Virus record (IMG/VR): IMGVR_UViG_3300031774_000014
Span: 1 to 58,317 of that record
DNA length: 58,317 nucleotides
Direction: 5' to 3' (one strand)
Source of the DNA: a virus
Shown here: positions 19,213 through 48,702 of the stretch, in pieces
Layout of the letters: each line of letters opens with the position of its first letter
How positions within the stretch are numbered: the first letter of the stretch is position 1
Program-made: the position numbers and the translations under genes
The notes under the pieces: model-generated
What the model was told of the DNA's origin: nothing
The model's database searches: none
The model's input: the letters and a program-made list of their open reading frames with translations, nothing else

Positions 19213-19871
19213 TTATATAAACCCATACCCGTAGGGCTAATTCCTGAAAGATCGACACCAGAAGGGCTAACTCCCGTCTCCGTTAGAAGATGTCCTGAAT
19301 AGGGTGTGTCAGCGTCTGTTTGGCATAATATATAATCTATATCCGGGGCATCTTGTCCCGCTACTTGCCTTGGCGTAGCTCCATACATATTATATGCATA
19401 TGCTAAGTCTTTAATTTTTTGTTCGGACTCTGAAGCTAAAGCCTTGAAGTTTTTACTTAAATCTAATTTGTTGGTAAATAATCCCGGAATCGCTGACACC
19501 GGTCTTTTTATCGTCGTGTCTCCTTCCCTAAGCTCCGTCCAGTTTGATTGTCCGCCTCCGTCTATTCCGGAAATTGTGCTATCATAACTGCCCCTTAATA
19601 TTTTCCTGGCTTGTTTTGTGTTGTAATCCCTCAGGTACATTTCTTCCAGTATAGAGGATTCCTCATCTCCTAGCCTTGGATAAGGGTTACCATCTACCCC
19701 GGTAAAGCAAAATTTTTGATTTAATATTATATTAAGCTCTCCAAGCTTTCCGCTTAAAGAGCCCGATATACTGAGTAATTCAGCCTGCTGTTCAGTAGGG
19801 TCTTCTATGAAGTCAAATTCATATTTTAATATACCACTAGCTAGCTCACCAATTTGATTAAATGAATGCAT
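19209..19871 (-). CDS. Head-tail connector-type protein (tentative)
   Basis: A 220-residue protein located between the capsid genes and the tail genes, where head-completion adaptors usually lie. It has helical stretches (EQQAELLSISGSLSGKLGEL, LDLSKNFKALASESEQKIKD) and a Gly/Asp-rich C-terminal tail. It is preceded by a GTGTA late motif. It converges with the chaperone gene, sharing 4 bp. No confident family match is visible. Confidence 0.45.
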   Translation of the reverse strand: MHSFNQIGELASGILKYEFDFIEDPTEQQAELLSISGSLSGKLGELNIILNQKFCFTGVDGNPYPRLGDEESSILEEMYLRDYNTKQARKILRGSYDSTISGIDGGGQSNWTELREGDTTIKRPVSAIPGLFTNKLDLSKNFKALASESEQKIKDLAYAYNMYGATPRQVAGQDAPDIDYILCQTDADTPYSGHLLTETGVSPSGVDLSGISPTGMGLYN

Positions 19872-19880
19872 GTAATTAAG

Positions 19881-19885
19881 TACAC
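19881..19885 (-). promoter_or_regulatory. Late-type GTGTA motif
   Basis: CGTGTACTTAATTAC lies immediately before the ATG at 19871. Confidence 0.4.
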
Positions 19886-19895
19886 GTGAAACAAA

Positions 19896-20294
19896 TTATT
19901 GATTTAAAATCTTTAGGATATCTTTTTCTTTTTGAGAGCCAGGTTCTACCATTGGCTTCGTAATTTGAATTGATTTTAATGCTCCCTGTGCTTGTTGCTT
20001 ATATGCTTTAATTAATTTAGACTTCAGTGTAACTTTTGTTCCTGATGGGAAGACCCCTGCACTTACTGCTAATTCTTGCATTTCAGTCAATTGCATGCTA
20101 GCTAAACTTGCCTCGAATTCTTCAATTGTATTAGCCCCAAAAGGATTTTTTTGCTTTCTGCCAATCATATGTTCTAGGCTCCTTGCATAACTAGCCTCTT
20201 CCTTTATGTGGTTTTTCCCATCACTGAATTCTTGTATTTTTTTAGATGTCTTCTTTGCGGGCTTTTTTGCATTTACATTTTTTTTATTTTTCAT
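19896..20294 (-). CDS. Basic protein with SAP/Rho-N-like helical motif
   Basis: A 132-residue protein with a Lys-rich N-terminus (NKKNVNAKKPAKKTSKK) and a central LTEMQELAVSAGVFPSGTKV-LKSKLIKAY segment. This resembles the helix-loop-helix of SAP/Rho-N DNA-binding domains. It follows the capsid gene after a terminator and has its own Shine-Dalgarno (AAGGAGAAAGG). A DNA-binding head or packaging-associated role is inferred. Confidence 0.5.
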   Translation of the reverse strand: MKNKKNVNAKKPAKKTSKKIQEFSDGKNHIKEEASYARSLEHMIGRKQKNPFGANTIEEFEASLASMQLTEMQELAVSAGVFPSGTKVTLKSKLIKAYKQQAQGALKSIQITKPMVEPGSQKEKDILKILNQ

Positions 20295-23836: not shown

Positions 23837-25846
23837 TTATTTTTTATTTTTTTTACTATGATACAGTATAGCCGCAGGATAAGATACTATTTTATGCTCT
23901 TCTCCAACCTCTAATACTTCAGGCATAATATTTAAATCTTCTATATTATTAAAATCTTTAATGCATTCGCTTGCCTTGCTTTTCCAGCAGTCCATATTGG
24001 AAGACATGACTATACTTTCAGAAAGACTCTCTATCATTGTTTTATGGTTTTTAGATAAACGCTTCTTGTCGTATGCTTTCTTGAGTTCAGATTCCATATG
24101 TTTACCCAAGTCTTCAATGGCATATATAACGGACTGTATGTCAGCTCTACTGTATGAATCTTCTTTTGCGAGTAAATTGTTTGTTTTTGTTTTTGTGCCA
24201 GCGGGTCTTCCTGTTTCTTGCTGGGTGGATTGTTGTGGCTGGCTTTGATCTAGCTCCTGACCTTCTGGTAAAATAGGCTGAGCGACACTCAGGGGGGTAT
24301 AAAAACCCTGCTCCCTTTGTTCTACGAATTTTTCTTGGGCAGACTTTAAGTCGGAAGGGTTTGGGTAAACGCCTTGCTTGAGGGCAGTCATTCCTTGCTC
24401 TGGGGTTATGATGCCCATCTCGATAAGTCTAGAAGTTACTCTATGCATTTGCACTTCATCTTTAATATCTATCTCCACAAACTTCGCCTTGGGGTAGTTC
24501 TTGAATCCCATGGCCTTGCAAACCTCTTTTATTTGTGGCTGTAAAATGTCATTAAGGAATGTGTTCCTTGCTTCTTTTAGCCTCTCGAGAAATATTTGAG
24601 CTTTAACTTGAGTGCTGGAGTAGTTTTCTTTACCCACGATAATATTCTGCAAACCCTCCTTGATGTCTTCGTTAACTATATCGTATTTATCGGATCCAAG
24701 AACTTTGTTTAGGTCAGGGATTACAAATTCCGCCTTTGTGGTATAGTCTGCTATTAATGCTCTACCTATGCTTTCATTTTGAAATAAATCCTGCATAGCC
24801 TTCAAGTTGTTTGGGTTTATTCCTCCTTTGTCAGGAGTATTACCCATTGTAACTAGTAATATAACATTTTCAATAGTTCGAGTAATTGCCTGGTCCACTT
24901 TCTTGAGTTCCATCTTCCAGTTTATATCATCAAGAACCGGAAACCCAAAGGGAGTAGCAAACGGCTCGTAGTCTTGTTTTTTGTAAAAAGAGAATATAAG
25001 TTTGGATGGATCTAGACTAATTAAAACTCCTTCTTGATTAAACTGGCTACCATTAATCGCTTTTTTAGCATCCTCAGGAAGGGCATCAAATACTTCTTGG
25101 TCGTAATCTGTCTGGGGGTGCTTAAGCTTTTGAATATCGTATTCGCTTAATATTTTCTTATAGACTCCGTCTTGAGCATCAAAAGATAATACCCTATCAG
25201 CTACAAAATCATAAGGGTTTAAGAATACATACTTAACTGGAATTTTCCTATTAGGCAATACTTCTTTTTCAGCAGCATATACTTTATTTAATTTTACTAA
25301 GTCTTCTGGAGTGAACTTAGCATTTAACTTATACATAAATACATTGCCAGACCTATAATATTCTCTAAAATACTGATCTTTAAGTTTCCATATTTCTATT
25401 CTATCCATCCATTTCTCTATAAAGTTTCTTGCTTTTTCAGACCCCCCTTCTAGGTATATGTCAGAATTTGAGAACTCAGACATTACATCGATAGCATTTC
25501 TAAAGATCGCTATATTCGCATAAGCCTTTTGGCATAGCAATATTGAGGATCGAGGGCTAATGTAATTCTTCTCATTACTGTAAGAAAGTGGACAGTCCTC
25601 TATATTCTTATATTTATTTTGTTTTTGATTTGTCGAAATATAGTTTCGTCTTGTTCTTGTTCCGTCTTCACACCCAGGCTGATTTACATTCCTGTTGCGA
25701 GATGCCTCTGCATAATATGCTTCCCCAGCACTTGAGGGTTTTACTTCTTCATCTTTTAATGGTAGGGAGTTCTGACTTTCTCCGGCCCCATTTGCAGTAT
25801 TAAAATTATTCCAATAATCCGATTTTTTTACATATTTTCTTGGCAT
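23837..25846 (-). CDS. Portal protein
   Basis: A 669-residue protein between the terminase and the protease-scaffold, the standard portal position. Residues about 100-500 contain a portal-like core (FREYYRSGNVFMYKLNAKFT, PVKYVFLNPYDFVADRVLSF) and a helical segment (LKKVDQAITRTIENVILLVT) consistent with the stem helices. The last ~120 residues form a charged helical extension. The dodecameric ring at one capsid vertex would act as the DNA entry channel and tail attachment site. A GTGTA motif precedes the ATG. Confidence 0.88.
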   Translation of the reverse strand: MPRKYVKKSDYWNNFNTANGAGESQNSLPLKDEEVKPSSAGEAYYAEASRNRNVNQPGCEDGTRTRRNYISTNQKQNKYKNIEDCPLSYSNEKNYISPRSSILLCQKAYANIAIFRNAIDVMSEFSNSDIYLEGGSEKARNFIEKWMDRIEIWKLKDQYFREYYRSGNVFMYKLNAKFTPEDLVKLNKVYAAEKEVLPNRKIPVKYVFLNPYDFVADRVLSFDAQDGVYKKILSEYDIQKLKHPQTDYDQEVFDALPEDAKKAINGSQFNQEGVLISLDPSKLIFSFYKKQDYEPFATPFGFPVLDDINWKMELKKVDQAITRTIENVILLVTMGNTPDKGGINPNNLKAMQDLFQNESIGRALIADYTTKAEFVIPDLNKVLGSDKYDIVNEDIKEGLQNIIVGKENYSSTQVKAQIFLERLKEARNTFLNDILQPQIKEVCKAMGFKNYPKAKFVEIDIKDEVQMHRVTSRLIEMGIITPEQGMTALKQGVYPNPSDLKSAQEKFVEQREQGFYTPLSVAQPILPEGQELDQSQPQQSTQQETGRPAGTKTKTNNLLAKEDSYSRADIQSVIYAIEDLGKHMESELKKAYDKKRLSKNHKTMIESLSESIVMSSNMDCWKSKASECIKDFNNIEDLNIMPEVLEVGEEHKIVSYPAAILYHSKKNKK

Positions 25847-39738: not shown

Positions 39739-39939
39739 ATGAAATTAGTTCTCACAACAATAGGTCAAGGCAAGGTCGCCATAGTAGAAAGCGCCGAAAA
39801 GGCGGATGAACGTAAAGGGGAAATGTACATCAGCCATGCAGTAGCAAGGTACAATGTGGAAAAAGGCAACTTTGTAGATGTATCAGCCAAAGGATGGAAT
39901 CCCGAAGGTCGTCTCTATGTGCTAGCCGAAGACATGTAA
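39739..39939 (+). CDS. Small early protein, unknown function
   Basis: A 66-residue protein (GKVAIVESAEKADERKGEMY), beginning 2 bp after the previous stop. Its own stop codon forms the first bases of the dyad element at 39937-40003. Confidence 0.55.
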   Translation: MKLVLTTIGQGKVAIVESAEKADERKGEMYISHAVARYNVEKGNFVDVSAKGWNPEGRLYVLAEDM

Positions 39940-40003
39940 GTCGTTGAGTATCAGGCGCTTATGGCGCCCTGGCCCGCCTAAGTCGTTGACTATCAGTGGG
40001 TTA
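39937..40003 (-). repeat. Two-dyad 67-bp element, copy a (no promoter)
   Basis: Two 25-bp dyads starting at 39937 and 39979 (42 bp apart) flank a GC-rich core (TGGCGCCCTGGCCCGCC). Unlike copies b-g it lies between converging genes and has no promoter at the fixed distance. Confidence 0.85.
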
Positions 40004-40008
40004 CGGGT

Positions 40009-40263
40009 TTAATTACACCATTCGGCGTCTTCTCCTTGTTCGTCCATTAGCCACTCGTCTAGTGCGTAGGTGTCAAGGTCAGGATCGTTATAGCTCACCC
40101 CGTCAGGGGTGACAGGGGTGCCGCAATCTACTAGCGCTTGAGCTAGGTCTTTGTAGTGAACGAACCGACGCGCCTTCTTATAAAGACTCCGGTCGTTGCC
40201 TAGCCATAGCGCTACGTTCCAAGTCTCCCAATTCTTCCATCCGTTGTATGTTGTATCTGTCAT
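40009..40263 (-). CDS. Conserved phage protein with NWETWNVALWL motif
   Basis: An 84-residue protein starting with YNGWKNWETWNVALWLGNDR, a motif recurrent in small conserved phage proteins of unknown function. The acidic C-terminus ends in AEWCN. It lies 2 bp after the upstream gene, in the same unit. Confidence 0.7.
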   Translation of the reverse strand: MTDTTYNGWKNWETWNVALWLGNDRSLYKKARRFVHYKDLAQALVDCGTPVTPDGVSYNDPDLDTYALDEWLMDEQGEDAEWCN

Positions 40264-40265
40264 AA

Positions 40266-40469
40266 TTAACTTTCTTTGAATTCTTTTATAATTTGTTCCA
40301 TTTGTGAAAGTACAGATTTTTTGTTTCCTTTGAATCCGTACTCAGTTTTTGCGATTGAATATGCTGATTGACCTCTTCCCTTCATTCCAAGACACTCTAA
40401 CTTGAGCGCGGATCTTATACTGAGAAATCGAAACATATCAATTTGTTCGGGTGTTTTTAATACTAACAT
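40266..40469 (-). CDS. Conserved small phage protein, unknown function
   Basis: A 67-residue protein with FRFLSIRSALKLECLGMKGR followed by GYGFKGNKKSV-like residues (EYGFKGNKKSVLSQMEQIIK), a pattern I have seen in cyanophage-like small proteins. Function unknown. Start fixed by its promoter. Confidence 0.65.
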   Translation of the reverse strand: MLVLKTPEQIDMFRFLSIRSALKLECLGMKGRGQSAYSIAKTEYGFKGNKKSVLSQMEQIIKEFKES

Positions 40470-40475
40470 AATAAT

Positions 40476-40504
40476 AATCTAGTTGAGTTTTTCGGTTTTG
40501 TCAA
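40476..40504 (-). promoter_or_regulatory. Leaderless-type promoter
   Basis: TTGACA, 17 bp, TAGATT, 6 bp, ATG at 40469. Confidence 0.8.
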
Positions 40505-40505
40505 A

Positions 40506-40691
40506 TTAAATAACAAGGCAATTAGCGATAGCCATTTGGTCAATAGCATCACAAATCTGTTCTTTCTCAAGTTCTGCATTGATGATTGTACCTTGTGACC
40601 AATTACAACCTGCATCTGCATCGATTTTCTCTGAGTCGATAATTTGTTGAAGTTGGTTAATTCTTTCGTTGAGTTCTTTTAATGTTGTCAT
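40506..40691 (-). CDS. Small early protein, element-controlled
   Basis: A 61-residue helical protein (LKELNERINQLQQIIDSEKI), unknown function. It sits behind a TTGCTA promoter and dyad element b. Confidence 0.6.
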   Translation of the reverse strand: MTTLKELNERINQLQQIIDSEKIDADAGCNWSQGTIINAELEKEQICDAIDQMAIANCLVI

Positions 40692-40697
40692 AATAGT

Positions 40698-40726
40698 AAA
40701 CTAACACCCTAACCTAATTATAGCAA
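40698..40726 (-). promoter_or_regulatory. Leaderless-type promoter with degenerate -35 (element b)
   Basis: TTGCTA, 17 bp, TAGTTT, 6 bp, ATG at 40691. An A/T-rich UP-like stretch (AACTTTTTTC) abuts the -35. Confidence 0.8.
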
Positions 40727-40756
40727 GAAAAAAGTTAAATTAAATGCATGTTGCCA

Positions 40757-40823
40757 TAAGCACTTGACTATCAGGCACTTATGGCGCCCCGGCCCGCCTA
40801 AGTCGTTGACCATCAACAACTTA
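40757..40823 (-). repeat. Two-dyad 67-bp element, copy b
   Basis: Dyads begin at 40757 and 40799. The distal one reads TAAGTCGTTGACCATCAACA..TTA. The near edge is 66 bp upstream of the ATG at 40691. Confidence 0.9.
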
Positions 40824-40835
40824 GGGGGGATTATG

Positions 40836-40946
40836 CTACTTTTCCCAAGTGTCGTCTTGCCCAAGCATACATTGAAACATAAGAAAGAAAGCAAAGAATG
40901 TGGGCGTCAAGAAGAAAAAGTAAATAATAAATTCTAAAATACTCAC
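40836..40946 (-). CDS. 36-residue membrane micropeptide
   Basis: A very short gene starting at GTG 40946, overlapping the previous stop (GTGA). The peptide MSILEFIIYFFFLTPTFFAF followed by FLMFQCML has one long hydrophobic span, then a polar tail ending in DTWEK. Coupled position plus a clear membrane segment support it as real. Function unknown. Confidence 0.5.
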   Translation of the reverse strand: MSILEFIIYFFFLTPTFFAFFLMFQCMLGQDDTWEK

Positions 40947-41209
40947 TTGTAAAGTCCTTTCATTTGGTCGCTAATACCAAGATCCAAATCCTCTTCGTCA
41001 ATCGACTCGGCAGTAGGGTTGTAATCAATAAGAGACATCTCGTCTTCGATGTCATGCTTTTGATTGTCAAGTAATCCATGCTCGCCCAAAACCTCTTGAG
41101 ACTTAATCTCTGAAACAAAATCTTCTAGAGACTTGTTGAGACCAAGACCTTTAGGCGATTGGACGGCGTGCTTAATGATGGATAATCTTTGTTCTTGTGT
41201 TAATGTCAT
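40943..41209 (-). CDS. Small acidic protein, unknown function
   Basis: An 88-residue protein (KSLEDFVSEIKSQEVLGEHG). It overlaps genes on both sides by 4 bp, as the middle gene of a coupled three-gene set. No family is recognised. Confidence 0.6.
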   Translation of the reverse strand: MTLTQEQRLSIIKHAVQSPKGLGLNKSLEDFVSEIKSQEVLGEHGLLDNQKHDIEDEMSLIDYNPTAESIDEEDLDLGISDQMKGLYK

Positions 41210-41472
41210 AGTTTTAATTGTTTTAATTGTTTATCATTTATAGACTGTCTCATTAAATAAGTCAATTCATTATCATACTTTTGTTGCTCTTTAGCTGACT
41301 CAAGAGCATAATTTGCTTCAATACCGCATTTAACTAAAAGATTTACTTGTTGAAATGTTTCTAGTCTTAGTTTAGCTTTTGACTTTCTATAATTAGCTTG
41401 AAGTTTGTTTTGTTTTTGTCGGGTTGCTTCTTTTTGGATAAGCGAGATTCTTTCTTGTTTTTTTAATGTCAT
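41206..41472 (-). CDS. Small basic coiled-coil protein
   Basis: An 88-residue, Lys/Gln-rich helical protein (QKEATRQKQNKLQANYRKSK). Function unknown. Start fixed by the leaderless-type promoter. Confidence 0.6.
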   Translation of the reverse strand: MTLKKQERISLIQKEATRQKQNKLQANYRKSKAKLRLETFQQVNLLVKCGIEANYALESAKEQQKYDNELTYLMRQSINDKQLKQLKL

Positions 41473-41478
41473 AATAGT

Positions 41479-41507
41479 AAATTAGTTTAATGGTAATGCT
41501 TTGTCAA
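41479..41507 (-). promoter_or_regulatory. Leaderless-type promoter
   Basis: TTGACA, 17 bp, TAATTT, 6 bp, ATG at 41472. The -35 lies inside the end of the upstream gene. Confidence 0.8.
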
Positions 41508-41709
41508 GCCTTGTGATAACAAATCGCCTAATGTTTTTAAGCACATCTCTTAATTTTATTTCAACCCTTGCTCTACTTACATCAATCTCTTCCCCTATCT
41601 CTCTGAGTTTCATCTTATGCCAATAGCGCATTTCTAATAGTTCTGAGTCTTCATTGTTCAAGCGAGCCATAACTTGCTCGATGTAATCTTTTGTTTCGTA
41701 TGGTGTCAT
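41482..41709 (-). CDS. Sigma-70 region-4-like HTH protein
   Basis: A 75-residue protein. LNNEDSELLEMRYWHKMKLR followed by EIGEEIDVSRARVEIKLRDV matches the helix-turn-helix of sigma region 4 (L-x-x-R-Y-x-x-x-x-x-L-x-E-I-[GA]-x-x-x-x-x-S-x-x-R-V). It has no region 2, so it cannot act alone as a sigma; an anti-sigma, sigma-appropriating or DNA-binding regulator role is likely. It is a candidate early regulator of the dyad element. Confidence 0.65.
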   Translation of the reverse strand: MTPYETKDYIEQVMARLNNEDSELLEMRYWHKMKLREIGEEIDVSRARVEIKLRDVLKNIRRFVITRLDKALPLN

Positions 41710-41715
41710 AATAGT

Positions 41716-41744
41716 AAGGTAAATTAGTTTTAGGAGTTAAGCAA
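41716..41744 (-). promoter_or_regulatory. Leaderless-type promoter
   Basis: TTGCTT, 17 bp, TACCTT, 6 bp, ATG at 41709. Confidence 0.7.
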
Positions 41745-42086
41745 GCTTTTTTCTTCACGAATTGCAACGAGTAAATCTTCGTGAGCTTTTCCGTCAAGTT
41801 GAAATTGTCTCATGAGTTTAGAAATGTCAATAGGTTTTTGCCATCCTAGCACATCATCATATAAAGAAAGAGGAACTTTCTTTCTGTCTCCGCCCTCATC
41901 AAATTGAGCACCAAACACTGCAACTTCAAAAGTTTCATGCTGATAAGTACCATAAGGCAAAGACCAATCGTCTTCTATGTCGCCCGCAATAACAGAAAAT
42001 AAATATCCGTTGTCAAGCTCAAGTGATGCAGTCCATCTTTTAATATCTTTGTGGTGTGTGAATTTTAAATCATTGAATGTTTTCAT
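41730..42086 (-). CDS. Small early protein, unknown function
   Basis: A 118-residue mixed alpha/beta protein (WTASLELDNGYLFSVIAGDI). No family is recognised. The promoter lies 8 bp rather than 6 bp from the ATG. Confidence 0.6.
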   Translation of the reverse strand: MKTFNDLKFTHHKDIKRWTASLELDNGYLFSVIAGDIEDDWSLPYGTYQHETFEVAVFGAQFDEGGDRKKVPLSLYDDVLGWQKPIDISKLMRQFQLDGKAHEDLLVAIREEKSLLNS

Positions 42087-42094
42087 ATAATAAT

Positions 42095-42123
42095 AAACTA
42101 AATTAGTTTGTTTTGTTTGTCAA
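42095..42123 (-). promoter_or_regulatory. Promoter, 2-nt leader variant
   Basis: TTGACA, 17 bp, TAGTTT, 8 bp, ATG at 42086. Confidence 0.7.
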
Positions 42124-42512
42124 CTATTATCTTCAAGGCTTGCCCACTCTGCTTCGCCCGCAATAATATCCATGATGTCAGAAATAACTTGATCGTAAAT
42201 TTTAGCATCCATTCTGTGATACTTGTTAAGCTTTTTATCAAATTCTTTACAAGCCTGACTTATAAAACATGGAGCATGGTCAACGAACCGATTAAAGAGT
42301 CCGTCATCTGTGTGAATGACATTTTTTTTCTTGCCCGATTCTATAATCTCTTCCAATTCACTTTCTATCCAGTCTTCATGCTCTTCGGAAATTTCACCAC
42401 AATCTTTGTAATATTGTTTTTTTCTTTCTCCTATTAGTTCTTGATGTAATTTTTTATGCTCAATCAAGTCGTCTCTTAATTCAAATAATTTTTTAAAAGT
42501 TTCTTTTTTCAT
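42120..42512 (-). CDS. Small early protein, unknown function
   Basis: A 130-residue charged helical protein from the ATG at 42512, chosen because the promoter lies exactly 6 bp upstream (a longer reading frame exists but has no such support). It contains DDLIEHKKLHQELIGERKKQ. No family is recognised. Confidence 0.6.
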   Translation of the reverse strand: MKKETFKKLFELRDDLIEHKKLHQELIGERKKQYYKDCGEISEEHEDWIESELEEIIESGKKKNVIHTDDGLFNRFVDHAPCFISQACKEFDKKLNKYHRMDAKIYDQVISDIMDIIAGEAEWASLEDNS

Positions 42513-42517
42513 AATAA

Positions 42518-42757
42518 TTATATAACTTCTTGTAAGTCTTTTGTCAATGCTCTTTCTGCATCTACTTGTTCTTGTAATAAGTTGAGTTTGTTTAGTAAGC
42601 CTTTGTAGCCGATATAGTCGCCACGAAAGTGACCTTTCCATACTCCGTCAACTCGTTGAAATGTGATATCCCACTTCGATTTATAGTCATAAGTTCTTAG
42701 CAAGCCATTTGGCAAGCGCTCGAAGTAGAATTCTTTTCCGTTGTCTTTAATTGTCAT
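42518..42757 (-). CDS. Small early protein, unknown function
   Basis: A 79-residue protein from the ATG at 42757 (promoter-supported). WDITFQRVDGVWKGHFRGDY suggests a small beta domain. Its last codons contain the promoter of the next gene. Confidence 0.6.
   Translation of the reverse strand: MTIKDNGKEFYFERLPNGLLRTYDYKSKWDITFQRVDGVWKGHFRGDYIGYKGLLNKLNLLQEQVDAERALTKDLQEVI
42519..42547 (-). promoter_or_regulatory. Leaderless-type promoter
   Basis: TTGACA, 17 bp, TATATA, 6 bp, ATG at 42512. It lies entirely inside the 3' end of the upstream gene. Confidence 0.8.
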
Positions 42758-42763
42758 AAATAT

Positions 42764-42792
42764 AAAGTAGTTTAGTTTTTGCTCTGTGTCAA
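42764..42792 (-). promoter_or_regulatory. Leaderless-type promoter
   Basis: TTGACA, 17 bp, TACTTT, 6 bp, ATG at 42757. Confidence 0.8.
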
Positions 42793-42971
42793 ATAGAAAC
42801 ACGAATAAATTCTGTAGTGCTGTTACCCACATCAGCGCGGATAAAATGAATCAAATCTTCCTCCAATGCTTGCTCGACTGTGGCGAGGTGATCTTTGAGT
42901 TTGCTACTGTAGAGCCAAATCTCTCCGTCCTGGGTTGAATTGATAAGTTCGATTAGTTCTTTTGTTGTCAT
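42789..42971 (-). CDS. Small early protein, element-controlled
   Basis: A 60-residue protein (QDGEIWLYSSKLKDHLATVE). Function unknown. It is controlled by a TTGCTA promoter and dyad element c. Confidence 0.6.
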   Translation of the reverse strand: MTTKELIELINSTQDGEIWLYSSKLKDHLATVEQALEEDLIHFIRADVGNSTTEFIRVSI

Positions 42972-42977
42972 ACCAAT

Positions 42978-43006
42978 ACACTAAGGCATCCGGCTAACTA
43001 TAGCAA
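42978..43006 (-). promoter_or_regulatory. Leaderless-type promoter with degenerate -35 (element c)
   Basis: TTGCTA, 17 bp, TAGTGT, 6 bp, ATG at 42971. Confidence 0.8.
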
Positions 43007-43036
43007 GAAAAAAGTGAAATTAATTTAAGATTGTCG

Positions 43037-43103
43037 TAAGTCGTTGACTGCCAGACACTTATGGCGCCCCGGCCCGCCTAAGTCGTTGACTATCAGCGGG
43101 TTA
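43037..43103 (-). repeat. Two-dyad 67-bp element, copy c
   Basis: Dyads begin at 43037 and 43079, with GC core TGGCGCCCCGGCCCGCC between them. The near edge is 66 bp from the ATG at 42971. An orphan promoter points into it. Confidence 0.9.
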
Positions 43104-43114
43104 TAAGATTAATA

Positions 43115-43143
43115 AATGTAGTTGAGTTTGTCGCTCGTGTCAA
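43115..43143 (-). promoter_or_regulatory. Orphan promoter firing into element c
   Basis: TTGACA, 17 bp, TACATT with no ATG at the expected start (TCT instead). The expected start near 43108 is 5 bp from element c, so the RNA would consist of the element itself. Confidence 0.6.
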
Positions 43144-43152
43144 ATTAAAAGA

Positions 43153-43767
43153 TCATTTTTTTTCTTGAGCTTTGTAGTCGGCAACCATGTCATCCGCCTT
43201 TTTTTTGTCAGATTTCTTAAGTTTGCCGATCTCTTCCAGGAAAACTATAGTGCAACGAGATAATTCTGATTCTTTCCACTCTTCAAATATCATATTCAAG
43301 ATTTCTTTACCAATATTCAAAATATTCTTCCACTCAATATCATCATTACGACGCCAAAGTTTATTCCCATAGCTGTTGTAGTATGCTCGATTGACGTATA
43401 AAGAGTCAATATATTCAAGTAATGTATAATTGATTGCATCCTCAGTTCCTGAATCAAACGTGATAAATGCATTGCAAAAATTTTCCAATGTCAAACTCAA
43501 CCCTTGGCCGAAAACACCTTGTCCGATTATAGATTCTTGAAACATATCGAATACTGAGCAAACCCTTGAATTCTCTACTTTAGGAAAGTTTTCTTGCTCT
43601 TCATCTATTAGTGAAAGGTAATCAGCTTCTACATCATGATCAAGTAAAATGTAAACATCTTCTTGTTTTTTAGCAAGCAAGTGCCTGAACAATTCTGACA
43701 TGAAATAGATTTGCCTGTGAGTTAATTGTTGGTAGATTTTTCTGTTGCTTTCTATTGTTGTTGTCAT
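43153..43767 (-). CDS. Early protein, unknown function, element-controlled
   Basis: A 204-residue helical protein (LTHRQIYFMSELFRHLLAKK; TLLEYIDSLYVNRAYYNSYG) with a Lys-rich end. No family is recognised. It follows dyad element d and a TTGCTA promoter. Confidence 0.6.
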   Translation of the reverse strand: MTTTIESNRKIYQQLTHRQIYFMSELFRHLLAKKQEDVYILLDHDVEADYLSLIDEEQENFPKVENSRVCSVFDMFQESIIGQGVFGQGLSLTLENFCNAFITFDSGTEDAINYTLLEYIDSLYVNRAYYNSYGNKLWRRNDDIEWKNILNIGKEILNMIFEEWKESELSRCTIVFLEEIGKLKKSDKKKADDMVADYKAQEKK

Positions 43768-43773
43768 AATAGT

Positions 43774-43802
43774 AACCTAACACCGCCACCTAACTATAGC
43801 AA
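43774..43802 (-). promoter_or_regulatory. Leaderless-type promoter with degenerate -35 (element d)
   Basis: TTGCTA, 17 bp, TAGGTT, 6 bp, ATG at 43767. Confidence 0.8.
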
Positions 43803-43832
43803 GAAAAAAGTAAAATTAAATGAATGTTGTCG

Positions 43833-43899
43833 TAAGTCGTTAACTATCAGGCACTTATGGCGCCCCGGCCCGCCTAAGTCGTTGACTATCAACAACTTA
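43833..43899 (-). repeat. Two-dyad 67-bp element, copy d
   Basis: Dyads begin at 43833 and 43875. The distal dyad extends outward as CCTAAGT...ACTTAGG, 13-bp arms with one mismatch. The near edge is 66 bp from the ATG at 43767. Confidence 0.9.
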
Positions 43900-43920
43900 G
43901 GAGACTTTTTGGGGGTTGAC

Positions 43921-44649
43921 TTAGTGGGCTAAGTACGCTATGCCCTTTTTGCATCCCTTAATAAAGCAAAGGTTGCAATTATGCGCTTGACAAGTTGCAA
44001 GAATCTTGCCGTCCTCACCCTTTACATAAGTTGCGGGGCAAACAAAATGTCCGTCTTGCTCGGCTTGCTCTTTGCTAGTATAAACCGAAGTGCCCGCGTC
44101 GAGTCCGTCCACTTGAGGGGCTGGCTCGTCAACATAAATTGCGCTTGGCTTAATGCAAACGTTTTTGAGACTAGCTAACTTTTGCAAGTGGGGAAGTTGA
44201 GAATCGCGCTTCCATTCCCTAGTTGGAAACCAAAATTTGATAGTTGGAAATTGTTCGCAAATCTTAATCCACGCGGTAATATACTTAGGCGAAAATAGGT
44301 CGCCTGAATCATGAACTCGAAACAAATCTGTGTTTGTCTTTTTGAGTTGCTTTTTGTTTCCGTGCTTGTCGAAATACTTTGCGCGAATTTGCTTGCACAT
44401 CTCGTCAATAAAGGTTTGCCCGTTGTCTTGATGTAAAGACTTTGTAATAAGATCCGCCTTGCCTTGTAAACTTGCCTTGACATTGGAAAACATATAAAAG
44501 CCCTTGCAAGCATAGCAAGAATCACAAATAAACTTTTTGCCCGCTTCTTTAATCTTTGCTAATAGCTGCGCGGCAGGGCAATACTTGAAAGCGGGAATGT
44601 TGAACGAATAGCAAGGCATCTTGCTTGGATTGGATAATAAGTTAATCAT
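43921..44649 (-). CDS. Gp88-domain-like protein (cysteine-rich)
   Basis: A 242-residue protein. SKMPCYSFNIPAFKYCPAAQ, FICDSCYACKGFYMF, LFRVHDSGDLFSPKYITAWI and the Cys-rich end CQAHNCNLCFIKGC match the mycobacteriophage gene-product-88 domain, a conserved family with no proven function. Multiple CxxC-type pairs suggest metal or Fe-S binding. Start is fixed by the leaderless-type promoter. Confidence 0.75.
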   Translation of the reverse strand: MINLLSNPSKMPCYSFNIPAFKYCPAAQLLAKIKEAGKKFICDSCYACKGFYMFSNVKASLQGKADLITKSLHQDNGQTFIDEMCKQIRAKYFDKHGNKKQLKKTNTDLFRVHDSGDLFSPKYITAWIKICEQFPTIKFWFPTREWKRDSQLPHLQKLASLKNVCIKPSAIYVDEPAPQVDGLDAGTSVYTSKEQAEQDGHFVCPATYVKGEDGKILATCQAHNCNLCFIKGCKKGIAYLAH

Positions 44650-44655
44650 GTATAA

Positions 44656-44684
44656 AATATAGTTGAGTTGTTTTGAGATTGCAA
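44656..44684 (-). promoter_or_regulatory. Leaderless-type promoter
   Basis: TTGCAA, 17 bp, TATATT, 6 bp, ATG at 44649. Confidence 0.7.
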
Positions 44685-44687
44685 GCT

Positions 44688-44879
44688 TTAAGCAACTAAA
44701 TCTTCAAAGAAGTCAGGCTCAAGAGAAAATTCACTTACAAAATGATTTTCCCAATCCGATAGTGTACCGCCTTGTCCGATATCTAGCCACATTGCTGAGT
44801 TAAACGCGACCACTTGATCCTCCGCCTCTCGATGAGTTAATCCGTCGCGGTTCATTAAGGTTTTAATTATTCTGTTCAT
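44688..44879 (-). CDS. Small early protein, element-controlled
   Basis: A 63-residue protein (MNRDGLTHREAEDQVVAFNS), a helical pattern common in small phage proteins. Function unknown. It lies behind element e. Confidence 0.6.
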   Translation of the reverse strand: MNRIIKTLMNRDGLTHREAEDQVVAFNSAMWLDIGQGGTLSDWENHFVSEFSLEPDFFEDLVA

Positions 44880-44885
44880 AAATAT

Positions 44886-44914
44886 AAAGTACCACCAAAC
44901 CTAACCGAACACAA
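44886..44914 (-). promoter_or_regulatory. Leaderless-type promoter with degenerate -35 (element e)
   Basis: TTGTGT, 17 bp, TACTTT, 6 bp, ATG at 44879. Confidence 0.75.
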
Positions 44915-44944
44915 GAAAAAAGTGAATTAAATCGAAAGTTGTCG

Positions 44945-45011
44945 TAAGTCGTTGGCTATCAGGCACTTATGGCGCCCGGGGCGCTGTAAGTCGTTGACTA
45001 TCAGTGGGTTA
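44945..45011 (-). repeat. Two-dyad 67-bp element, copy e
   Basis: Dyads begin at 44945 and 44987. The core reads TGGCGCCCGGGGCGCTG, different bases but again self-complementary. The near edge is 66 bp from the ATG at 44879; a terminator lies just upstream. Confidence 0.9.
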
Positions 45012-45034
45012 TACAACTTATACCCCCACAAAAA

Positions 45035-45059
45035 AGCCCCTCCGACAACGGGAGGGGCT
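45035..45059 (-). terminator. Intrinsic terminator
   Basis: AGCCCCTCC and GGAGGGGCT pair around a 7-base loop, followed on the minus strand by TTTTT. It ends the operon that begins at 47112. Confidence 0.9.
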
Positions 45060-45078
45060 GTATTTGGCAAGATCGTAT

Positions 45079-45237
45079 TTATCGTCCTCGCTTTTCCAAT
45101 TGATACAATTTATCCAAAAGGCCCATATGCTGAGATTTTAGGTTATAATAATCCGGAGTGTTCTCTCCGTAAATCTCGCGCACTGCGAGTTGATATCCAA
45201 GTTTACGAATGTTGTCCTGTAGTGTTTTAATTGACAT
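45079..45237 (-). CDS. 52-residue protein, last gene of operon
   Basis: A short gene read directly: MSIKTLQDNIRKLGYQLAVR, ending LYQLEKRGR. It starts 5 bp after the stop of the WYL-like gene and ends 20 bp before a strong terminator. GAGGATAAAAATT before the ATG gives a ribosome site. Function unknown. Confidence 0.65.
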   Translation of the reverse strand: MSIKTLQDNIRKLGYQLAVREIYGENTPDYYNLKSQHMGLLDKLYQLEKRGR

Positions 45238-45242
45238 AATTT

Positions 45243-45476
45243 TTATCCTCTGTTAAGTGAAATGACGCGATCATAGCGAAAAGAACGGATTCCGCCTTTG
45301 TTGAAGCAATAAGCTCTAAAGCCCGCAACCGAAAGACCTTCCTTCGAATTGCCGAACTCGTTCTTGTGTTTTGGTTTAGTGATGGTGTACATCTGAGTGA
45401 CTCCGTTAGCCTTGGTATAAAGCACTTGGTAGCGCGCATTAAATAGACTAAGAATTTTGTTTAATAACTTCTTCAT
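45243..45476 (-). CDS. WYL-like small domain protein
   Basis: A 77-residue protein from the ATG at 45476, chosen because AGGAG lies 8-9 bp upstream. GLSVAGFRAYCFNKGGIRSF followed by RYDRVISLNRG resembles the C-terminal WYL-domain pattern (FRAYC...R.FR.DRI), a ligand- or nucleic-acid-sensing fold. It overlaps the upstream gene by 29 bp. Confidence 0.55.
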   Translation of the reverse strand: MKKLLNKILSLFNARYQVLYTKANGVTQMYTITKPKHKNEFGNSKEGLSVAGFRAYCFNKGGIRSFRYDRVISLNRG

Positions 45477-45699
45477 TTTCTTCTTCTCCTGTGATAGGGT
45501 TTTGATTGTAGTGGTTGTAAGCATCAGTCACTTCTTGTGCTGATTCGAAACTTACAGAAATAATATCTCTTGTGTTGTATGGGTGGTAATCTGTGGAAGA
45601 CTCTTCAAAGAATAACTCCCAAAGCTCGCTTACTTCATCCCATGTTGGTAAATCTAGTGGTCTGCCGATGCAGGTTGCTTCTATGTAATTGTTTTTCAT
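45448..45699 (-). CDS. Small early protein, unknown function
   Basis: An 83-residue acidic protein (LPTWDEVSELWELFFEESST). It is coupled by 4 bp to the gene before it. A weak promoter-like TTGCAA, 16 bp, TAATAT also lies before its ATG. Confidence 0.6.
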   Translation of the reverse strand: MKNNYIEATCIGRPLDLPTWDEVSELWELFFEESSTDYHPYNTRDIISVSFESAQEVTDAYNHYNQNPITGEEENEEVIKQNS

Positions 45700-45956
45700 T
45701 CTTCTATATTATATATGCCGAAGTGGTTTGCAAGCTTTAAAATGTTAGAATCTTCATTAAAAAAGTGGTAAGCATATGTGAGTAGTGCCTCTTTACTCCT
45801 GTCGTTGTAATCTCTAATCTCATCATAAATCTCAAAAATATTGAGATTCCAATTCCATGATTCTACTATGTCTGACACTTTCTCTCCGTCTACCAAGAGA
45901 GAGCCTGTCTGATCCATAGCTTGTTGCTTTGTTAATTTTGTATAAGTAGTAGTCAT
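45696..45956 (-). CDS. Small early protein, unknown function
   Basis: An 86-residue protein (LLVDGEKVSDIVESWNWNLN), coupled by 4 bp overlaps on both sides. No family is recognised. Confidence 0.6.
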   Translation of the reverse strand: MTTTYTKLTKQQAMDQTGSLLVDGEKVSDIVESWNWNLNIFEIYDEIRDYNDRSKEALLTYAYHFFNEDSNILKLANHFGIYNIEE

Positions 45957-46180
45957 AGTGATGCCCCTTCCATTGAGCCGTTAAGGCATAGTTCGTATTC
46001 TAGTGATTGTAAATCAACAATAATGTCCGCAAGGACTTCTTCTGCTGATTGTACTGTGAATCCATCCACGCCAAGTTCTTGTCCGCGTTCGACATTAGCC
46101 TTGTCCATAGCATCTGCATATCTAAGGTTTCCGTCAACGAGATGGCGAATGGTTTGTATAACTTTTTCTTGTGTCATCAT
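45953..46180 (-). CDS. Small early protein, unknown function
   Basis: A 75-residue helical protein (TIRHLVDGNLRYADAMDKAN). Internal promoter in the operon; the first of two adjacent ATGs is at the leaderless distance. Confidence 0.6.
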   Translation of the reverse strand: MMTQEKVIQTIRHLVDGNLRYADAMDKANVERGQELGVDGFTVQSAEEVLADIIVDLQSLEYELCLNGSMEGASL

Positions 46181-46186
46181 ATAAAC

Positions 46187-46215
46187 AATATAGGTTATCT
46201 GAGTGCGGTTGTCAA
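46187..46215 (-). promoter_or_regulatory. Leaderless-type internal promoter
   Basis: TTGACA, 17 bp, TATATT, 6 bp, ATG at 46180. It overlaps the end of the upstream gene. Confidence 0.75.
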
Positions 46216-46398
46216 CTCATTTTGAAACTTTTTTGCTTCAACTAAATCTTTTAAGTCGAAGCTAATAGATACAAGGTTTTCATTGATGTTCTTCATTACC
46301 TTGACGAGATCCTCCATGTTTGCATGTCTGCGGTGTTCCAGCATCTCATCGCTGAGTCCGTCAATGGCGGTTTTAATTGCATATATTTCTTCTTTCAT
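46195..46398 (-). CDS. Small coiled-coil protein, unknown function
   Basis: A 67-residue helical protein (DGLSDEMLEHRRHANMEDLV), directly abutting the stop of the upstream gene. Confidence 0.6.
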   Translation of the reverse strand: MKEEIYAIKTAIDGLSDEMLEHRRHANMEDLVKVMKNINENLVSISFDLKDLVEAKKFQNELTTALR

Positions 46399-46596
46399 TT
46401 AACTATACATTACTCCTTCTAATTCTGATTGCAACCATAATATGGCTTTTTGTCTGATGTCACAGTGTGAGACTTCAGTAAATACATTGTCATTGACTCG
46501 AAGATAAAGATCGTTTCCGTTCTTTTTCTCTGTCTCTAGGTCGTTTTCTTTATACCACTTTTGGGCATAATCTATCATTCTTTGTTCGTGGCTCAT
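46399..46596 (-). CDS. Small early protein, unknown function
   Basis: A 65-residue protein (YAQKWYKENDLETEKKNGND) inside a tightly packed operon. No family is recognised. Confidence 0.6.
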   Translation of the reverse strand: MSHEQRMIDYAQKWYKENDLETEKKNGNDLYLRVNDNVFTEVSHCDIRQKAILWLQSELEGVMYS

Positions 46597-46597
46597 T

Positions 46598-46702
46598 TTA
46601 ATCCTCGCTGTTTATGTAAGCATTGTATAGTTTTAATAAATCTGCATCAGATCCATGTTCAATGATGCTCATTAGGTAGTCGACAATTTCTTCTTTGTTC
46701 AT
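46598..46702 (-). CDS. 34-residue acidic peptide gene
   Basis: A short gene read directly: MNKEEIVDYLMSIIEHGSDA, ending NAYINSED. Its ATG overlaps the previous stop (ATGA) and its TAA lies 1 bp before the next ATG, so it fills the gap exactly. Function unknown. Confidence 0.6.
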   Translation of the reverse strand: MNKEEIVDYLMSIIEHGSDADLLKLYNAYINSED

Positions 46703-47112
46703 GATATATAGGCGGTTACTTGGTTGTGTGATAATAAAACTTCATCTGCATAGTATACAAAACTTTCATCCTTCTTGTCAACAAAAGTTTCATACTTATA
46801 GGGGTTGTATGTTACCTCAACTTCTCTAGTGGCAACTTGGGGATTGCGGGATACATTCTCAGCATCCTGAAGATAACCCTTGACAAAAGCATGGACATTC
46901 TTACGCTTCTCACGAAGAACCTTTTCTCTGCCCTTGATGTCAACATGGAAATAGCAATCCCAAAGTCCAATACTTTCTCCCCTGGGAATGTGAGCCTTAA
47001 CTAAACCATGTTGCTTGATGCTCCAACAATCCTTGTGTAGATTCTTGTAAACATATACGGGGCGATTCTTTTTAATCGTGTATCTTGGGTCTTGTTGGTT
47101 TCTCTTAATCAT
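46699..47112 (-). CDS. Conserved phage protein, first gene of element-controlled operon
   Basis: A 137-residue protein with VYVYKNLHKDCWSIKQHGLV, a motif seen in small conserved phage proteins of unknown function. It opens the operon 47112-45079 (nine genes) behind dyad element f. Confidence 0.65.
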   Translation of the reverse strand: MIKRNQQDPRYTIKKNRPVYVYKNLHKDCWSIKQHGLVKAHIPRGESIGLWDCYFHVDIKGREKVLREKRKNVHAFVKGYLQDAENVSRNPQVATREVEVTYNPYKYETFVDKKDESFVYYADEVLLSHNQVTAYIS

Positions 47113-47118
47113 ATAACT

Positions 47119-47147
47119 ACAATAAGGTAGTTTTTTAATAACTGCAA
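47119..47147 (-). promoter_or_regulatory. Leaderless-type promoter with degenerate -35 (element f)
   Basis: TTGCAG, 17 bp, TATTGT, 6 bp, ATG at 47112. Confidence 0.8.
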
Positions 47148-47177
47148 GAAAAAAATGCGATTAAATGAAAATAGTTG

Positions 47178-47244
47178 TAAACCGTTGAGTACCAACACTT
47201 TATGGCGCCCGGGGCGCCGTAAGTCATTGACTATCAACAACTTA
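47178..47244 (-). repeat. Two-dyad 67-bp element, copy f
   Basis: Dyads begin at 47178 (most diverged box) and 47220, with a self-complementary core GGCGCCCGGGGCGCC. The near edge is 66 bp from the ATG at 47112, and a terminator lies upstream. Confidence 0.9.
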
Positions 47245-47267
47245 TGAAACTATGTGGCACAAAAAAA

Positions 47268-47287
47268 CCCCCTCCCGAAGGAGGGGG
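47268..47287 (-). terminator. Intrinsic terminator with tetraloop
   Basis: CCCCCTCC and GGAGGGGG around a four-base loop (UUCG on the transcript), followed on the minus strand by TTTTTTT. Confidence 0.95.
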
Positions 47288-47310
47288 CGAACCAACAACA
47301 TATAACTAAC

Positions 47311-48183
47311 CTATAAAACCTCTACCAACTCGCCTTCTTCAACCTCCATGTCAAGAGTATTGTCGACATGATTATTGATATCGAAACTAACTTCGCCATC
47401 GAGAACAGAATGCAAAGCATCTGACCTATTAGGAAGCTGAACAAGATTGCCCTTGTACACTTCTGTGAAAGCATTGTAAAGAGAATTAACATTGCGATCC
47501 CAAAATTCGGGATGATCGGAAGACTCCCATTGATCGACAACATCAATGATTTTAGATTTCGGCAATGCCCCTGCTTTGCAGGCGCGAATTACTATATCAT
47601 TAGCTTGTGCATTGCTAATCTCTAAATTCTTGTAAGCCTCTATTCTTGAGTCTTGACCATGCCAAAAGCCAAAAAGCTTACCGAGTGCGCGATTGATTGT
47701 AAAATCAAGATCGTTAAGAATGTTTCGAGTATGACGACGCGCAAGCTTGATCGTATTGGTAAAAATTAAATTGTCACAAACAAATGGCGCGTCACCTGCA
47801 CACAATCCCGCAGGAAAAGTTTTGTCGTGAGAATTGCGGATGCCAACTACACAACCACGATCAGTTGAAACCCTGTTAGGGTGATCAACCGAAAATAATC
47901 CGAAGTAATGCTTGCGATCCCTAGCAAGAGAGTGAACCTCATCTTGAATCGTAAAACCATTGGAATCAAGAAACCCTTTGGTGCGCTCAACTACATCATG
48001 GTGAGCGATAGGTTGGTAAGAAACGGCTCGCTCGCCATTGGCATTTTCTTTTTTGCGATACTCTACGGGTGGAGTAGGAACTCCAACAACTTGGTCAAAT
48101 TCTACAAGAGTACGATTACCTCCGCAGATGTTAAGGTTAACAGATTTGCGAGGAGCGGTAGTGATGTTTTGTTCGTTATTCAT
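47311..48183 (-). CDS. DUF932-like phage/plasmid protein
   Basis: A 290-residue protein whose segments (YFGLFSVDHPNRVSTDRGCV, VGIRNSHDKTFPAGLCAGDA, FVCDNLIFTN) match the DUF932/phage-plasmid protein family (about 250-300 residues) of unknown function. A short acidic tail follows. It is a single-gene unit with its own promoter and strong terminator. Confidence 0.75.
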   Translation of the reverse strand: MNNEQNITTAPRKSVNLNICGGNRTLVEFDQVVGVPTPPVEYRKKENANGERAVSYQPIAHHDVVERTKGFLDSNGFTIQDEVHSLARDRKHYFGLFSVDHPNRVSTDRGCVVGIRNSHDKTFPAGLCAGDAPFVCDNLIFTNTIKLARRHTRNILNDLDFTINRALGKLFGFWHGQDSRIEAYKNLEISNAQANDIVIRACKAGALPKSKIIDVVDQWESSDHPEFWDRNVNSLYNAFTEVYKGNLVQLPNRSDALHSVLDGEVSFDINNHVDNTLDMEVEEGELVEVL

Positions 48184-48189
48184 AATGTT

Positions 48190-48218
48190 GATAATATAGT
48201 AATGATTGTTTTTGTCAA
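48190..48218 (-). promoter_or_regulatory. Promoter with the same -35 to ATG distance
   Basis: TTGACA lies at the standard distance from the ATG at 48183. The best -10 (TATTAT) gives 16 bp spacing and a 7-bp gap. Confidence 0.65.
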
Positions 48219-48227
48219 TGGTTAATT

Positions 48228-48461
48228 TTAATTGTTGTAAGTTTTTTTTAGTTGGTCGTAGGCATAAGCTTTTCCTGCGATACTTTCAAAAACTTCTTTT
48301 AATAAAGAGTAGCCTAATAAATCCCTAGCATCTAAATCTGCTTTGTCAATGATATTGGTCTCTAATAATTCAGTCGCTGTATCCATTGCTTGTATGGAAT
48401 CTAAATTACTAAAGTCGATCTCTGTGTCGTCTTCGTTGTGTGAGTTAGGTATATAATACAT
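48228..48461 (-). CDS. Small acidic early protein, unknown function
   Basis: A 77-residue protein (EIDFSNLDSIQAMDTATELL). It overlaps the 41-residue gene by 17 bp. Confidence 0.6.
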   Translation of the reverse strand: MYYIPNSHNEDDTEIDFSNLDSIQAMDTATELLETNIIDKADLDARDLLGYSLLKEVFESIAGKAYAYDQLKKTYNN

Positions 48462-48570
48462 AATTTTTCTTGTGTTTAAGTTTGCGGTCTAAAACTTTGT
48501 TATTCATCTTGAAGGCTCTTGCCTTAGTGAAAAGGATTGGTTTTCTTACTTTTACTTCTCTCGCTTTCAT
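48445..48570 (-). CDS. 41-residue basic peptide gene, element-controlled
   Basis: A short gene read directly: MKAREVKVRKPILFTKARAF, ending KNYVLYT. Very Lys/Arg-rich. The ATG lies 6 bp after the -10 of an element-g promoter. A nucleic-acid-binding role is possible but not shown. Confidence 0.65.
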   Translation of the reverse strand: MKAREVKVRKPILFTKARAFKMNNKVLDRKLKHKKNYVLYT

Positions 48571-48576
48571 ATATAC

Positions 48577-48605
48577 ATACTAGGCTAGTTTTTTAATTAT
48601 AGCAA
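48577..48605 (-). promoter_or_regulatory. Leaderless-type promoter with degenerate -35 (element g)
   Basis: TTGCTA, 17 bp, TAGTAT, 6 bp, ATG at 48570. Confidence 0.8.
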
Positions 48606-48635
48606 GAAAAAAGTTCGACTAAATGAAAATAGTCG

Positions 48636-48702
48636 TAAGTCTTTGGCTATCAGGCGCTTATGGCGCCAGGGGCGCCGTAACCCCTTGACTATCAAAACTT
48701 TA
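48636..48702 (-). repeat. Two-dyad 67-bp element, copy g
   Basis: Dyads begin at 48636 and 48678. The core GGCGCCAGGGGCGCC is self-complementary. The near edge is 66 bp from the ATG at 48570. Confidence 0.9.

What the first reader, a model, noticed from the sequence alone, without database searches (positions are those of the whole stretch)
39937..48702. A 67-bp two-dyad DNA element locked at -66 in front of six promoters
Seven copies (39937, 40757, 43037, 43833, 44945, 47178, 48636) each hold two 25-bp dyads (half-site about TAAGTNNNTGA, 3-bp centre) whose starts are exactly 42 bp apart, four helical turns, with a GC-rich core between. In the six copies with a promoter the near edge is exactly 66 bp from the ATG and 31 bp from the -35. 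Those six promoters have a poor -35 (TTGCTA x4, TTGTGT, TTGCAG), whereas most others have TTGACA or TTGACG. This is what an activator-dependent phage regulon would look like: two dimers on one face of the DNA upstream of weak promoters. Spacing and sequence are seen; the regulator is inferred and not identified.
Basis: partly seen in the sequence, partly recalled or inferred. Interest (0 to 1): 0.9.

Follow-up and report, generated by a model that had tools for sequence, protein, structure and literature searches.

The report
Paired-dyad switch upstream of phage promoters
A large group of uncultured viruses of bacteria carries, in front of a special set of weak gene switches, a paired DNA landing site that a still unidentified protein probably uses to turn those switches on; the site and its distance to the switch are conserved across many related viruses, although the exact geometry differs between lineages.

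Summary
In detail: seven 67-bp copies, each with two 25-bp dyads 42 bp apart, none elsewhere in the 58,317-bp phage record; six lie 65 bp in front of an ATG with a poor -35. About 50 of 64 relatives, sampled through a neighbouring gene, carry the dyad (TAAGTCGYTGR half-sites, 3-bp centre), nearly always paired. Dyad spacing is uniform within a phage but differs between lineages, so 42 bp is no universal 'same face' rule. The distance to ATG clusters at 65/66 or 61-63, with further classes at 51/52 and about 75; some copies sit at convergent gene ends without a promoter. The central inference is strengthened: with the element 57-67 bp upstream only 20/119 promoters have TTGAC, against 64/93 at other distances and 272/386 without it (p about 1e-25; sequences are related). 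These weak promoters share an A/T box, ATTTAATTTAACTTTTTTC, and are apparently leaderless. Half-sites do not covary as a hairpin would, so a dimeric protein is likely. A phage protein with two Fis-type HTH domains beside a sigma-like gene is a tentative candidate. Best reading: an activator-dependent phage promoter class.

The parts
39937..40003 (.). Element copy 1, between convergent gene ends (39739-39939 + and 40009-40263 -); no promoter
   Evidence: the same junction carries an element in G024 (53899) and G025 (182064)
40757..40823 (.). Element copy 2 (dyads 40757-40781 and 40799-40823, core 40782-40798), upstream of the - strand gene starting at 40691
40698..40756 (-). Promoter of gene 40506-40691: -10 TAGTTT 40698-40703, 17-bp spacer, -35 TTGCTA 40721-40726, A/T box and linker 40727-40756
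43037..43103 (.). Element copy 3 upstream of the - strand gene starting at 42971 (-35 TTGCTA 43001-43006)
43833..43899 (.). Element copy 4 upstream of the - strand gene starting at 43767 (-35 TTGCTA 43797-43802)
44945..45011 (.). Element copy 5 upstream of the - strand gene starting at 44879 (-35 TTGTGT 44909-44914); a terminator-like GC hairpin with T-run (- strand, about 45023-45060) lies just beyond its far side
47178..47244 (.). Element copy 6 upstream of the L5 gp82-like gene starting at 47112 (-35 TTGCAG 47142-47147); a terminator-like hairpin lies just beyond its far side
   Evidence: orthologous promoter carries an element in 40 of 51 relatives
48636..48702 (.). Element copy 7 upstream of the 41-aa gene starting at 48570 (-35 TTGCTA 48600-48605)
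   Evidence: orthologous promoter carries an element in 42 of 52 relatives
41482..41709 (-). 75-aa sigma-70 region-4-only protein, considered and set aside as regulator
   Evidence: Pfam Sigma70_r4 E 9.2e-10; no homologue in the 14 relatives searched at 1e-4

Best explanation
The element is an upstream activating site for a class of activator-dependent phage promoters. A dimeric DNA-binding protein occupies each of the two dyads. From there, through the A/T-rich box just upstream of the -35 (the UP-element position), it helps the host RNA polymerase start at promoters with a poor -35 (TTGCnT, TTGTGT), a TAnnnT -10 at 17 bp and a start at or next to the A of the ATG. Seen directly: the sites, their pairing, the lineage-specific geometry, the fixed distance to the promoter and the link to weak -35s. 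Inferred: that a protein binds, that it activates, that the mRNAs are leaderless, and which protein it is. A phage-encoded protein with two Fis-type helix-turn-helix domains, encoded next to a sigma-like protein, is the best available candidate, with low confidence (about 0.2).
For: Dyad conserved and paired across relatives not chosen by the element. Half-sites in 892 unique dyads show no compensatory pairing; a changed base is usually faced by the consensus base. Near edge to -35 is 30/31 bp in the 41/42 and 53 lineages and 26-28 bp in the 46-48 lineage. TTGAC: 20/119 with the element 57-67 bp from the ATG, 64/93 at other distances, 272/386 without (Fisher p 1e-25 near vs none; 0.80 other vs none). 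Both lineage groups share ATTTAATTTAACTTTTTTC directly upstream of the weak -35, a T-run-plus-C being present in 91/119 against 37/386. Orthologous promoters keep the element with lineage-specific geometry. Leaderless spacing: 140 starts with the -10 at exactly 6 nt, at most 20 at any other offset.
Against: No expression or binding data. 93 of 212 element-bearing promoters have the element at another distance, and their -35s are as good as those without. About 28 copies in 18 records sit at convergent 3' ends (my ORF calls are crude, 47 copies overlap called ORFs). Varying dyad spacing means the far dyad cannot always sit on the same face. Sequences are related, so the p-values overstate independence. 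The regulator is not known.
Confidence: 0.62

Rival explanations
1. Boundary or roadblock element: a protein bound to the paired dyads stops or insulates transcription at ends of transcription units, and the closeness to the next promoter follows from that.
For: Copies lie between transcription units, including convergent junctions they almost exactly fill (39937-40003 here; orthologous in G024 and G025). The element is roughly symmetric, which suits a two-way boundary.
Against: Gives no reason for a fixed 65/66 or 61-63 bp to the start or for the link to weak -35s. Two copies already have a terminator-like hairpin next to them (44945, 47178). Not every unit boundary has a copy (promoters at 40469, 41472, 46180 lack it).
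Confidence: 0.17
2. RNA or DNA hairpin: the dyads act as stem-loops in the transcript (terminator or stabiliser) or as cruciforms.
For: Each dyad and, more than shuffled controls, the GC-rich core are palindromic (0.51 against 0.36). AAGTCGTTGA hairpins occur in terminator-like settings in some Prevotellaceae genomes.
Against: No compensatory changes in dyad arms; no T-run after the element; with leaderless starts the element is not part of the downstream mRNA.
Confidence: 0.07
3. Repressor operator: the paired dyads bind a repressor that shuts these genes off later in infection.
For: Paired palindromes are common repressor operators (general knowledge); the element clusters in one 9-13-kb region of small, early-type genes near rIIA/rIIB.
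Against: Nearest base is 30 bp upstream of the -35, outside the core promoter; a repressor does not explain weak -35s at exactly this distance.
Confidence: 0.07
4. Site for phage DNA maintenance (replication origin, partition or packaging) that happens to lie in intergenic space.
For: All copies cluster in one region of about 9-13 kb in 200-kb genomes; similar single dyads beside a parS-like palindrome in two Akkermansia-type genomes.
Against: Promoter-locked distances and promoter-class correlation.
Confidence: 0.05

Closest known systems
Phage phi29 protein p4 sites at late promoter A3 (PMC3100819)
   Same: Dimeric activator on imperfect inverted repeats upstream of a promoter with a poor -35; sites come in pairs
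   Different: p4 site is CTTTTT-15 bp-AAAATG; one late promoter and four sites in a small phage, not a regulon of paired sites; no p4 homologue was sought here
Phage T4 middle promoters (MotA box plus AsiA; PMC2988021)
   Same: Phage regulon of sigma70 promoters with a good -10 and non-consensus -35 in a T4-like phage with rIIA/rIIB
   Different: The MotA box is a 10-bp site at -30 replacing the -35; here the site is two 25-bp dyads entirely upstream of the -35
Fis sites upstream of E. coli rrn P1 promoters (own knowledge)
   Same: Several dimer sites upstream of an A/T-rich UP element and a core promoter; the candidate protein has Fis-type HTH domains
   Different: rrn core promoters have good -35s and fixed multi-site arrays; site sequence differs
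Mycobacteriophage L5 stoperators (PMC9283540)
   Same: Many dispersed sites in short intergenic spaces of a phage genome
   Different: Stoperators are 13-bp, asymmetric, bound by a monomer and oriented with transcription; here sites are dyads, nearly always paired

Membership tests
phi29 p4-type activator sites | Upstream inverted repeat with a poor -35 | tested here: met
phi29 p4-type activator sites | Site CTTTTT-15 bp-AAAATG bound by p4 | tested here: not met
   dyad consensus TAAGTCGYTGR-N3-YCARCGACTTA against PMC3100819
T4 MotA middle promoters | MotA box WWWTGCTTtA 12 +/- 1 bp from the -10, replacing the -35 | tested here: not met
   consensus has TTGC with 17-bp spacing and dyads 26-31 bp further upstream; PMC2988021
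L5-type stoperators | 13-bp asymmetric site oriented with transcription | tested here: not met
   PMC9283540
sigma54 promoters with enhancer | GG at -24 and GC at -12 | tested here: not met
   promoter consensus shows -35/-10 spacing of 17 and no GG upstream of TTGC
Intrinsic terminator | RNA stem-loop kept by compensatory changes, then a T-run | tested here: not met
   for the dyad arms; no T-run next to the copies
Class I activator-dependent promoter | Regulator bound upstream contacts polymerase alpha CTD and raises output | not testable with these tools
   position and A/T box fit; no binding or expression data
Class I activator-dependent promoter | Allowed site positions differ by whole helical turns | tested here: inconclusive
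   near-dyad centres about -64, -75 or -78 and -88 from the start; differences of about 10-14 bp do not fit one phase

The most novel reading that the evidence does not exclude
A phage-encoded two-part regulator, a protein with two Fis-type HTH domains per chain plus a sigma-like partner from the adjoining gene, reads paired dyads and directs RNA polymerase to a separate class of leaderless promoters, with a geometry that each phage lineage has re-set (41 to 55 bp between dyads).
Probability: 0.17. Interest if true: 0.82.

Novelty: new variant of a known kind. Interest (0 to 1): 0.64.

Why it matters
It defines, from sequence alone, a conserved regulon and a new composite promoter type in a widespread uncultured lineage of T4-like phages of about 200 kb. 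Dozens of lineages with different dyad spacing form a natural experiment on how an activator site can change geometry while keeping its function. It also gives a testable regulator candidate and a clear set of target genes of unknown function, possibly for host takeover.

Tried and rejected
(1) The 75-aa sigma-region-4 protein inside the region (41482-41709) as regulator: no homologue in 14 relatives. (2) 42 bp as a universal helical rule: refuted by other lineages. (3) RNA hairpin: no compensatory changes. (4) Actinobacterial host, suggested by L5 gp82/GP88-like genes and TTGACN-17-TAnnnT leaderless promoters: no WhiB in 24 records; host unresolved. (5) Host-encoded site: perfect dyads occur in a few bacterial genomes, 15 and 12 copies in two Verrucomicrobiota genomes but 0-1 in the other 239, single rather than paired; not convincing, and no host link could be made. 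(6) Prediction test of the Fis-type candidate: seven further contigs with the gene hold no dyad, but all are fragments of 37-139 kb and the gene lies roughly 35-65 kb from the element region in near-complete genomes, so the test is uninformative to mildly negative; G011, a 137.7-kb fragment with 15 elements, also lacks the gene. (7) Fold search with the candidate's model: nothing at E <= 0.001; Fis structures appear only as weak matches. (8) Isolated phages: no close relative.

Full report
Observation. The window is a 58,317-base virus record of a T4-like phage (terminase, RIIA and RIIB hits). Each has two 25-bp dyads with starts 42 bp apart and a GC-rich core of 17 bp. In a Markov model of the window such dyads occur about twice by chance and never as a 42-bp pair in 30 runs; the window has 17 dyads and 7 pairs.

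Leaderless promoters. In 15 records of this clade, TTGNNN-17-TANNNT lies exactly 6 nt before the ATG in 140 ORF starts, against at most 20 at any other distance; among TTGAC promoters with that offset the spacer is 17 in 85 of 88. This is inferred from sequence; no 5' ends are available.

Relatives. The terminase has at least 127 relatives in IMG/VR, up to a 200-kb contig, and none above 60% identity among 50,697 isolated phage records. To avoid choosing relatives by the element itself, I sampled 64 loci through a neighbouring DUF932 protein. Most carry the dyad, nearly always as pairs. In 200-kb contigs the pairs are confined to one region of about 9-13 kb.

Geometry. Dyad spacing is uniform within a phage but differs among lineages: 41/42, 46-48, 50, 53, 55. 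The distance from near edge to ATG is 65/66 in the 41/42 and 53 lineages and 61-63 in the 46-48 lineage, with smaller classes at 51/52, about 75 and beyond 80.

Promoter class. Where the element lies 57-67 bp from the ATG, 20 of 119 promoters have TTGAC at the -35. The figure is 64 of 93 for elements at other distances and 272 of 386 without an element (Fisher p 1.3e-25 for near against none, 1.1e-14 for near against other distances, 0.80 for other distances against none). The effect holds in the 42 and 47 lineages taken alone (p 3e-7 and 8e-5) and is in the same direction but not significant in the 53 lineage (p 0.19). Related sequences make these p-values too optimistic. The weak promoters of the 41/42/53 group and of the 46-48 group share ATTTAATTTAACTTTTTTC immediately upstream of the -35, at the place of an UP element. 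At orthologous genes the element is kept (40 of 51 for the L5 gp82-like gene, 42 of 52 for the 41-aa gene); several orthologues without it have TTGAC, though not all.

What reads it. In 892 unique dyads TAA and TTG are nearly fixed, and when one arm changes the other usually stays at consensus. That is expected for half-sites of a protein dimer and not for a hairpin. Cores are GC-rich (median 0.82), somewhat palindromic, and share 6-mers more often within than between records (0.75 against 0.49), which suggests concerted evolution within each phage. One lineage (L190 type) has changed only the left half-site, to CAATTATATGA.

Candidate regulator. Only 9 of about 240 proteins of the 200-kb contig G025 are present in G041 and G039 (many paired elements) and absent from G045 and G058 (few, weak sites). 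Three of the nine are transcription-related: two sigma-like proteins (19499-20053 and 23914-24630) and a 283-aa protein (24617-25468) whose family carries Fis-type HTH_8 domains (7 of 8 members; 1.5e-15 with two matched stretches in L336:2930-4033). The Fis-type gene overlaps or abuts a sigma-like gene in every phage where it was read. Two HTH domains per chain would fit a half-site with two conserved blocks (TAAG and TTGA). The case is weak: five genomes, shared ancestry, no dyads in seven further fragmentary contigs with the gene, absence from the 137.7-kb fragment G011, and a model of moderate confidence without a clear structural relative.

Copies without a promoter. In 18 records about 28 copies lie between convergent genes (ORF calls are approximate, and 47 copies overlap called ORFs). 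The one in the window is conserved at the same junction in G024 and G025. A pure activator site does not explain these. A second role as roadblock or boundary is possible and is kept as the main rival.

Conclusion. The element is most likely an upstream activating site for a distinct class of leaderless, weak-35 phage promoters. It works like phi29 p4 at late promoter A3 (poor -35 compensated by a dimeric activator on upstream inverted repeats; PMC3100819) and, in logic, like T4 middle promoters (PMC2988021), but it fails the defining site features of both and of L5 stoperators (PMC9283540). I call it a new variant of a known kind. Literature searches found no description of it, but only an open-access library was searched.

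Noticed in passing
whole window and 14 related records: Apparently leaderless promoters throughout: the -10 lies exactly 6 nt before the ATG in 140 starts with a fixed 17-bp spacer.
   Followed up: partly
41482-41709 (-): A 75-aa protein consisting only of sigma-70 region 4 (Pfam E 9.2e-10), with no homologue in 14 relatives at 1e-4.
   Followed up: partly
G025 (200 kb; loci L148-L158): 19499-20053, 23914-24630, 95466-96035, 167977-168720: Four sigma-like genes in one phage genome.
   Followed up: no
L149:10745-11143 (-): ARAGORN predicts a tmRNA gene in the 200-kb relative, tag AESSQRVVDLDSIELGLEMAA.
   Followed up: no
43107-43143 (-): A TTGACA-17-TACATT promoter-like sequence points toward element copy 3 with no ATG at the expected place; it could transcribe the element.
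   Followed up: no
L281, L274 (Akkermansia MAG and an unnamed bacterium), L267, L268, L275 (Fibrobacter): Perfect TAAGTCGTTGA-N3-TCAACGACTTA dyads in bacterial chromosomes, in two cases beside a parS-like palindrome; 15 and 12 relaxed copies in two Verrucomicrobiota genomes, 0-1 in 239 others.
   Followed up: partly
L190, L194 lineage: Dyads with a changed left half-site (CAATTATATGA) and conserved right half-site, mostly unpaired.
   Followed up: partly
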